Assembly: GCF_003340345.1 (NCBI RefSeq)
Contig: NZ_PPTQ01000022.1
Span: 1-39,216 of the forward strand
DNA: 39,216 bases
From: Paraeggerthella hongkongensis
GTDB lineage: Bacteria; Actinomycetota; Coriobacteriia; Coriobacteriales; Eggerthellaceae
Reading direction: 5' to 3'
The notes beneath the pieces were generated by a model. That model was not told the DNA's origin, did no database searches, and saw only the letters and a list, made by a program, of their open reading frames with translations. This document shows positions 6,701 to 8,175 of the stretch, in pieces; position 1 is the stretch's first letter; the number at the start of each line of letters is the position of its first letter. A program made the position numbers and the translations under genes.

Positions 6701-8175
6701 TAGGCATCATCGCCGCCCAGTCCATTGGCGAGCCGGGCACCCAGCTTACCATGCGTACGTTCCACACCGGCGGCGTCGCAGGCGAGGACATCACGCATGG
6801 TCTGCCTCGTGTTCAGGAGCTTTTCGAGGCGCGCAAGCCGAAGGGTCTTGCCGTGCTGGCCGAGATCTCCGGTACGTTGCAGATTTCGGGCGACAAGCAG
6901 TTCAAGACGCTGACCATTCACGACCAGCAGGGCAACTTCCGCGAGTACGTGGTAAGCGCCCGCGCCCAGATGCTTCCGGGCGTGAGCGACGGCTGCCAGG
7001 TCAAGGTGGGCCAGCAGCTGACGAAGGGTTCCGTGAACCCGCACGACCTGCTGCGCCTGACCGACCCGAATACCACGCTGCGCTACATCGTGAGCCAGGT
7101 CCAGGGCGTGTACGTATCCCAGGGCGTTGACATCAACGACAAGCACATCGAGGTCATCGCGCGCCAGATGCTGCGCAAGGTGGCCGTGCTCGACGCGGGC
7201 GATTCCGAGCTTTTGCCGGGTCGCCAGGTCAACCGCTTCGAGTTCGAAGGCGTTGCCAACGCGCTTATCGCCGAAGGCAAGGAGCCGCCCGTGGGCCAGC
7301 CGCTGCTGCTGGGCATCACGAAGGCTTCGCTGGCCACGGATTCGTTCCTGTCCGCCGCATCGTTCCAGGAGACCACGAAGGTTCTCACGGACGCTGCCAT
7401 CGAGGGCAAGATCGATCATTTGGCCGGCCTGAAGGAGAACGTCATCATCGGCAAGCCGATCCCGGCGGGCACGGGCCTGACGCGCTACCGCGAAGTGGGC
7501 CTTACCTACAAGGGCCGTCCGGTTTCCGGCGTGGCGGGCGAGACGCTTCCCGACTTCGCTCCGGATGCGTTGCGCGAGATCGAGGAGCTGCTGCCGCAGC
7601 CGCAGGATTGGTCGCTTGACGGCGACGGCTACCTCAACATGGGCTCGAACTACGGCAGCTACTACAGCGGCCTGTCGTTGGGCCATCGCGGTCCGCAGCT
7701 GTCCGACGAGGATGCGCGCCTGTACATCTACGACGACCTGGGCGTGTCCCAGCGCTGGGCCAACAAGTTCAGCGAGGCCGGCATCGAGACGGTGGCCGAT
7801 TTGGTGGGCCACACCGAAGAGGACCTGCTGCGCATCGAGGGCATTGGCGTGAAGGCTATCGAAGAGCTGAAGGAGGGCTTGGAGGAGCGCGGTTTGACGC
7901 ACGTGATCGAGGACGATCTGGCGGCTACGAGCGACGACATGTCCCAGCTGCTCGACATGGTGTTCAGCCCGGACGACACCGTCCTCATCGGCGGCGACGA
8001 GCCTGCCACCTTCAACACCGAAGGCGAGGACATGCTGGGCGAGGCTTTGCCGCCTCGTTCCTACCAGCGCAACCTGGAGGAATTGGATGCGCTGCTGGGT
8101 TCCGTGGGCTCGCTGGGCTTCGGCCTGACGGGCAAGGAGGAAGAGGAAGCCTCCAACGCGGACGACGCGGAGTAA
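3769..8175 (+). CDS. rpoC: DNA-directed RNA polymerase subunit beta' with alpha-CTD-like tail
   Basis: This is the catalytic beta' subunit, 1468 residues. The N-terminal zinc finger has C63, C65, C78 and C81. The Mg-binding motif NADFDGD has D539, D541 and D543. The bridge-helix and trigger-loop regions ([15 protein letters not shown]-like and [16 protein letters not shown]) are present. The usual beta' body ends around residue 1245 ([14 protein letters not shown]). It is followed by about 220 further residues, of which 1324-1376 align gaplessly with the alpha subunit C-terminal domain: R1329, N1332, G1360 and K1362 match E. coli alpha R265, N268, G296 and K298. The last ~90 residues are acidic and low in complexity. 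The gene starts on the base after the rpoB stop and ends before a strong terminator. Assignment of rpoC is certain; the function of the tail is inference. Confidence 0.99.

What the first reader, a model, noticed from the sequence alone, without database searches (positions are those of the whole stretch)
7738..7896. beta' subunit carries an alpha-CTD-like DNA-binding domain
RpoC residues 1324-1376 align without gaps to the RNA polymerase alpha C-terminal domain. R1329, N1332, G1360 and K1362 fall on E. coli alpha R265, N268, G296 and K298, with the same spacing (3, 31 and 33 residues from the arginine). These alpha residues contact UP-element DNA and activators. The domain is placed on a ~220-residue extension after the normal end of beta'. 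If folded, this polymerase would have a third CTD-type module, on a different subunit, with possible new promoter contacts.
Basis: partly seen in the sequence, partly recalled or inferred. Interest (0 to 1): 0.85.

Follow-up and report, generated by a model that had tools for sequence, protein, structure and literature searches.

The report
Third alpha-CTD-like domain on RNA polymerase
In these gut bacteria the large beta' subunit of RNA polymerase carries its own diverged copy of the small DNA-gripping domain that normally sits on the alpha subunit, and some relatives carry zinc-finger-like motifs at the same tail instead, which suggests an unstudied extra handle on DNA or on regulators.

Summary
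RpoC (window 3769-8175, 1468 aa) runs 226 residues past the normal beta' end, and residues 1322-1373 match Pfam PF03118 (alpha-CTD) at 38-44 bits, cut-off 23.8. The isolated domain models at mean pLDDT 87; the tail model superposes on E. coli alpha-CTD at Z 10.6, 1.4 A over 66 residues. The genome keeps a normal alpha with its CTD.

The fusion is old: found across Coriobacteriales and 13 other families of the class, and apparently gained separately in a family of another class. It is under purifying selection as strong as nearby beta' core.

The four residues are over-read. R265/N268/G296/K298 occur in 85 of 85 distinct sequences of the order, but in 5 of 27 from other families, and R265 and N268 are lost in the second lineage. 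N294, C269, S299 and sigma- and activator-contact positions are changed, and the domain is more acidic than alpha-CTD. In three families two C-C-C-H motifs stand in its place.

Best reading: a neofunctionalised third CTD contacting upstream DNA; DNA binding is not shown. An NCBI RpoC model already spans the tail.

The parts
3769..8175 (+). rpoC, beta' subunit, 1468 aa, starting at the base after the rpoB stop
   Evidence: TIGR02386 1723.8 bits, NF011498 2970.8 bits
7495..8172 (+). beta' C-terminal extension, residues 1243-1468
   Evidence: TIGR02386 alignment ends at residue 1242 of the protein and at the model's last position
7546..7599 (+). conserved tail segment LPxxAPxxLxxIExxLP, residues 1260-1277
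   Evidence: LPxxAP in 19 of 19 order tails, 21 of 27 other-family CTD tails, 17 of 17 Cys/His tails of the class, 0 of 3 f50 tails (sequences)
7696..7914 (+). alpha-CTD-like helix-hairpin-helix domain, residues 1310-1382
   Evidence: PF03118 at 1322-1373; models; Z 10.6, 1.4 A over 66 residues
7753..7755 (+). R1329, position of alpha R265
   Evidence: R in 85 of 85 order and 27 of 27 other-family class beta' CTDs; Y in 9 of 9 f50
7762..7764 (+). N1332, position of alpha N268
   Evidence: N in 85 of 85 order, 8 of 27 other class, 0 of 9 f50
7846..7854 (+). G1360 to K1362, positions of alpha G296 to K298
   Evidence: G and K in 85 of 85 order; G 26 and K 20 of 27 other class (one row cut short there)
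7933..7977 (+). motif [15 protein letters not shown], residues 1389-1403; in other families of the class a similar motif lies before the CTD
8023..8109 (+). conserved C-terminal segment [29 protein letters not shown], residues 1419-1447
   Evidence: residues 1381-1446 have median dN/dS 0.093

Best explanation
The beta' subunit carries a homologue of the alpha C-terminal domain, tethered to the catalytic core by a faster-evolving linker of about 65 residues. Shown: homology, predicted fold, conservation, purifying selection, coexistence with a normal alpha. Inferred from trees: an old fusion, before the class diversified. Inferred further: because the beta' C-terminus lies beside omega on the upstream side of the enzyme (established RNA polymerase structure, recalled), the domain acts as a third CTD that touches duplex DNA upstream of, or behind, the polymerase, mainly through R265-type minor-groove and hairpin-backbone contacts. 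It does not duplicate alpha: its sigma-contact and activator-contact positions are altered, so it would use its own DNA preference or its own partner.
For: PF03118 over cut-off; fold. R-N-G-K in 85 of 85 distinct order CTDs, including all 39 loci (26 distinct) that were not fetched by CTD peptide patterns. R265 in 27 of 27 other-family class CTDs. Median dN/dS of the CTD 0.107 against 0.116 for beta' 1000-1240 and 0.303 for the linker (72 of 80 loci; 66-70 usable pairs each). 211 of 213 order genomes have two or more PF03118 matches; of the two exceptions one has only a 432-aa rpoC fragment and one no rpoC match. Two C-C-C-H motifs stand at the same tail in 17 of 17 tails read from three families, and a second gain elsewhere fits a tail that presents a nucleic-acid-binding module.
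Against: No DNA binding was measured. N294, which with R265 and a water contacts DNA (PMC5511352, passages), is G in every beta' CTD (121 of 121 distinct). Net charge of positions 257-311 averages -7.5 in the order against -1.9 for the class's alpha; over 16 positions that I chose as the DNA face it is +1 against +3. N268 is T in 11 of 27 other-family CTDs, and N268T in E. coli alpha abolishes PBAD activity (PMC11434276, passages). The second lineage lacks R265 and N268. Thermus polymerase, whose alpha-CTD lacks some DNA-binding residues, was not stimulated by an UP element (PMC5511352, passages).
Confidence: 0.45

Rival explanations
1. The domain is a protein-docking module: it kept the alpha-CTD fold but now binds a transcription factor, Nus-type factor, sigma, omega or the ribosome, not DNA.
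For: Acidic surface, loss of N294 and of several DNA-face residues, near-invariant helix 1 (VSQRWxNKFSE), loss of R265 and N268 in the second lineage. Known alpha-CTDs also bind proteins, e.g. Spx (1z3e). Conserved short motifs flank the CTD, and the segment after it is as constrained as the CTD.
Against: All four DNA residues are invariant in the order; Cys/His motifs at the same place in sister families are easier to understand if DNA or RNA is the target, though such fingers can also bind proteins.
Confidence: 0.35
2. The domain is mainly a non-specific nucleic-acid-binding appendage that holds upstream DNA or nascent RNA during elongation, with no role at promoters.
For: Flexible surroundings (block pLDDT 40-72 outside the CTD); canonical GIG hairpin, which in helix-hairpin-helix proteins gives non-specific backbone contacts (established knowledge); Cys/His motifs at the same place in relatives.
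Against: Very strong conservation of helix 1, not only of the hairpin.
Confidence: 0.15
3. A functionless remnant of a fusion, or a chance match.
For: Strong divergence outside the order: PF03118 at 21-25 bits in three of the 27 other-family genomes read, two of them under the cut-off.
Against: dN/dS 0.107; 211 of 213 genomes of the order; E 5.5e-11; fold.
Confidence: 0.03

Closest known systems
RNA polymerase alpha C-terminal domain (Pfam PF03118)
   Same: Fold (Z 10.6, 1.4 A over 66 residues), sequence over the family cut-off, R265, N268, G296, K298, D259, E302 positions kept in the order
   Different: Sits on beta', behind a ~65-residue linker; 264, 266, 269-272, 294, 299 and mostly 261 changed; much more acidic
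NF011498 (PRK14906) RpoC model of NCBIfam
   Same: Whole protein including the tail matches, 2970.8 bits, residues 2-1463; I recall that NCBI's older title for it was 'beta'/alpha domain fusion protein' (recalled, from no call)
   Different: A name only: no function, distribution, second origin or Cys/His alternative in anything I saw
Other alpha-CTD-bearing proteins outside RNA polymerase, e.g. an AAA+ like ATPase in G225 (L234)
   Same: An alpha-CTD-like domain on another protein
   Different: Its CTD keeps the alpha letters RSYNCL and NFG; not a polymerase subunit. The ATPase assignment is by eye (Walker motifs), not by a call
Lineage-specific inserts of beta and beta' (e.g. Actinobacteria beta'i1; BEAN and HABAS domains)
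   Same: Clade-specific accessory domains on the large subunits (PMC5511352 and PMC11515920, passages read)
   Different: Those are inserts within the chain; figure legends of PMC11515920 say that terminal residues beyond the shared core were masked

Membership tests
PF03118 RNA_pol_A_CTD domain | Profile score over the curated cut-off | tested here: met
   38.4 bits whole protein, 43.8 in genome search, cut-off 23.8
PF03118 RNA_pol_A_CTD domain | alpha-CTD fold | tested here: met
   Predicted model only: Z 10.6, rmsd 1.4 A, 66 residues to 8y5t_A2; isolated domain pTM 0.74
alpha-CTD that binds UP-element DNA | R265, N268, G296, K298 present | tested here: met
   85 of 85 distinct order CTDs, the window among them; 5 of 27 other class; 0 of 9 in f50
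alpha-CTD that binds UP-element DNA | Remaining DNA-face residues (C269, N294, S299; list recalled except N294, PMC5511352) | tested here: not met
   K, G, A in 85 of 85
alpha-CTD that binds UP-element DNA | sigma-contact residues D259 and E261 (PMC5511352) | tested here: not met
   D259 in 85 of 85, but 261 is G in 78, H in 5, A and N in 1 each
alpha-CTD that binds UP-element DNA | Binds AT-rich DNA upstream of -35 and raises transcription | not testable with these tools
   needs purified protein
RNA polymerase alpha subunit | CTD linked to an alpha N-terminal dimerisation domain | tested here: not met
   Domain is on RpoC; the real alpha is elsewhere (G000:C4, 321-aa frame)
NF011498 (PRK14906) RpoC | Score over cut-off 1437, with alignment through the tail | tested here: met
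   2970.8 bits, residues 2-1463 on model 1-1457 of 1459

The most novel reading that the evidence does not exclude
The beta' C-terminus is an evolvable socket for an extra upstream nucleic-acid-binding module: a CTD gained at least twice independently from alpha, placed on different sides of a conserved motif in the order and in the rest of the class, and replaced in part of the class by paired zinc-finger-like motifs. In Coriobacteriales it would make a three-CTD polymerase whose third CTD reads upstream DNA with its own specificity.
Probability: 0.35. Interest if true: 0.8.

Novelty: new variant of a known kind. Interest (0 to 1): 0.62.

Why it matters
RNA polymerase is usually treated as having two CTDs, both on alpha. 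A large group of bacteria, including human gut species, has a third on the largest subunit, and related families carry a different small module there. If it contacts DNA or regulators, promoter rules taken from E. coli and mycobacteria would not simply carry over to these bacteria, and the tail offers a natural experiment in how the upstream reach of the enzyme evolves.

Tried and rejected
Chance match: rejected. One origin for all beta' CTDs: the short domain tree puts all beta' CTDs on one side of the alpha CTDs (97/91), which would fit one origin; the RpoC tree nests f50 among families of its class that lack it, so I read f50 as a second gain. Long branches in a 62-column tree can group fast-evolving copies; the point is not settled. 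Order and other-class CTDs form one side of a branch (100/96), although a DxSxxxxxVFxP-type motif lies before the CTD in 25 of 27 other-class tails and after it in 16 of 19 order tails (the other 5 had no regex match). So either the tail was rearranged or the motif likeness is false; not resolved. In one search one class row (L182) was scored 'none'; its frame runs to the end of the fetched stretch, so it shows no absence. In one search two rows (L271, L289) are wrong-frame ORFs and are to be ignored; they also distort the drawn root. Tails of G049 (f8) and G093 (f19) were not read. Pfam DUF5763 misses three genomes (G013, G045, G073) whose tails show the motifs. In the phylum survey (396 genomes) one more genome outside the class and f50, G487 (f39), has two matches, the second place not listed; not followed. 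Omega loss as a reason for the tail: rejected, omega was found in 29 of 30 genomes (27 over the cut-off). Literature: ten searches. Searches gave no paper, one unrelated; of the papers listed by the others none has a title or abstract start about this domain; I read passages of three (PMC11515920, PMC5511352, PMC11434276). Subscription papers, such as the 2004 Gene paper on polymerase domain accretion, were not readable. No survey outside the phylum was made.

Full report
WHAT IS THERE. The window's rpoC (3769-8175, +) follows rpoB without a gap and encodes 1468 residues. The general RpoC model TIGR02386 ends at residue 1242; the remaining 226 residues are an extension. Within it Pfam finds PF03118, the alpha C-terminal domain, at residues 1322-1373, 38.4 bits against a cut-off of 23.8. 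The same genome holds an ordinary alpha (G000:C4, 321-aa frame, CTD 98.4 bits).

FOLD. With 59 aligned tails, AlphaFold2 gives a poor whole-tail model (mean pLDDT 63.7, pTM 0.35) but a confident CTD (blocks of 86-90). The isolated 80-residue domain with 9 rows has mean pLDDT 87.3 and pTM 0.74. VIA-align puts alpha-CTDs at the top: Z 10.6, 1.4 A over 66 residues, 33% identity to E. coli (8y5t_A2), Z 10.4 to B. subtilis alpha-CTD (1z3e_B). With the isolated domain, all 50 Foldseek rows shown are RNA polymerase entries.

DISTRIBUTION. The 80 loci kept (of 143 relatives found) in named genomes have titles of Eggerthellaceae genera, or Coriobacteriaceae, Coriobacteriales, Coriobacteriia or uncultured bacteria; the nearest is Paraeggerthella hongkongensis (99%). 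In 296 genomes of the class, 211 of 213 in the window's order have two or more PF03118 matches; the two exceptions (G226, G294) have no intact rpoC in their contigs. Outside the order 38 of 83 have two or more, 42 one and 3 none (recounted). For 27 of the 38, from 13 families, I saw where the second match lies: in frames of 1004-1600 aa for 25, and of 515 and 327 aa for two, where I did not check whether contig ends cut them; two of the 27 scores are under the cut-off. I fetched 25 of the 27 and two more (G119, G029); all 27 tails hold the domain, one of them cut short. In the class of f50 (79 genomes), 14 of 14 genomes of that family have a match in a 1019-1516-aa frame, and none of the other 65 has a second match (one has none at all). 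An RpoC tree nests f50 among those families (SH-aLRT 99 for the joint clade, quick tree; two other rows were faulty), so it is best read as a second gain.

RESIDUES. CTDs were aligned by an HMM of my own (four loci were left out: two repeats, L001 and L236, and two fetches of one AAA+ like protein, L234 and L270). Distinct sequences: 68 alpha (50+5+5+8), 85 order beta' (from 119 loci), 27 other-class beta', 9 f50 beta'. R265/N268/G296/K298: 68 of 68 alpha; 85 of 85 order beta'; 5 of 27 other-class (268 is T in 11, K in 6; 298 is T in 4); f50 is Y, S, G, K in 9 of 9. In the order eight other positions differ from the class's alpha majority in all 85: V264Q, S266W, C269K, L270F, K271S, R272E, N294G, S299A. 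Net charge of positions 257-311 averages -7.5 against -1.9 for class alpha. PMC5511352 (passages read) says that R265 and N294 contact DNA through an ordered water and that D259/E261 contact sigma R603. PMC11434276 (passages read) says that N268T, L270F, four K271 substitutions and A272E in E. coli alpha reduce PBAD activation, and that R265 and N268 contact DNA. The beta' CTD of the order thus keeps core DNA residues while carrying changes at positions where alpha loses activation. That is the basis for calling it neofunctionalised; it is inference.

SELECTION. Against 72 of the 80 loci (frame over 700 aa holding an exact 8-residue CTD string, a bias towards conservation), median dN/dS is 0.107 for the CTD, 0.116 for beta' 1000-1240, 0.303 for the linker and 0.093 for the segment after the CTD (62-70 usable pairs each). 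The segment after the CTD is as constrained as the CTD and should be part of any function.

THE ALTERNATIVE TAIL. In three families without the CTD, 17 of 17 beta' tails read (12 f8, 4 f19, 1 f20) carry two copies of C-x9-C-x9/10-C-x2-H at the end of the same tail. Pfam gives DUF5763 and CCCH-type finger matches over cut-off in the two tails scanned. In the quick RpoC tree these 17 lie inside a branch whose other members carry the CTD, apart from L182, which is cut off before that point (38 rows, SH-aLRT 99), so the CTD was probably lost and replaced. Free-standing frames of about 180-220 aa with DUF5763 matches, mostly under the cut-off, occur in some CTD-bearing genomes and could be the source.

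MECHANISM AND STANDING. See the explanation sections. The beta' C-terminus lies beside omega near the upstream face (established structure, recalled), so a CTD behind a 65-residue linker could reach upstream DNA. Two unrelated small modules at the same place are most simply explained by a shared kind of target such as DNA or RNA, but the acidic surface and the residues lost in f50 keep a protein target open. As to print: nothing listed by my ten searches (see Tried and rejected) describes the domain in its title or abstract start; NCBI's model shows that curators have seen tailed RpoC, and I recall an older title naming the alpha-domain fusion. I therefore call it a new variant of a known kind.

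Noticed in passing
L168, L169, L171-L181, L183-L186 (beta' tails): Two tandem C-C-C-H zinc-finger-like motifs stand in place of the CTD on beta' in three families of the class, 17 of 17 tails read.
   Followed up: partly
L199-L201, L237, L239, L241, L243, L245, L249: A second, apparently independent beta'-CTD fusion in a family of another class, with Y and S in place of R265 and N268.
   Followed up: partly
window 7933-7977 and tails: A DxSxxxxxVFxP-type motif lies after the CTD in the order and before it in other families of the class; it is also matched in 12 of 17 Cys/His tails.
   Followed up: partly
L234:1373-3265 (-): 631-aa frame in G225 with an alpha-CTD-like domain followed by what looks like an AAA+ ATPase (Walker motifs by eye).
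   Followed up: no
window 175-8184 (-): A 2669-aa open frame antisense to the whole of rpoBC, most likely a side effect of codon bias.
   Followed up: no
genomes: Omega (PF01192) scores are low in the order and f50 (23-42 bits, no match in G042) and higher in the rest of the class (43-59 bits).
   Followed up: no
G487: A genome of another family of the phylum (f39) has two matches to the beta' tail query; the second place was not listed.
   Followed up: no
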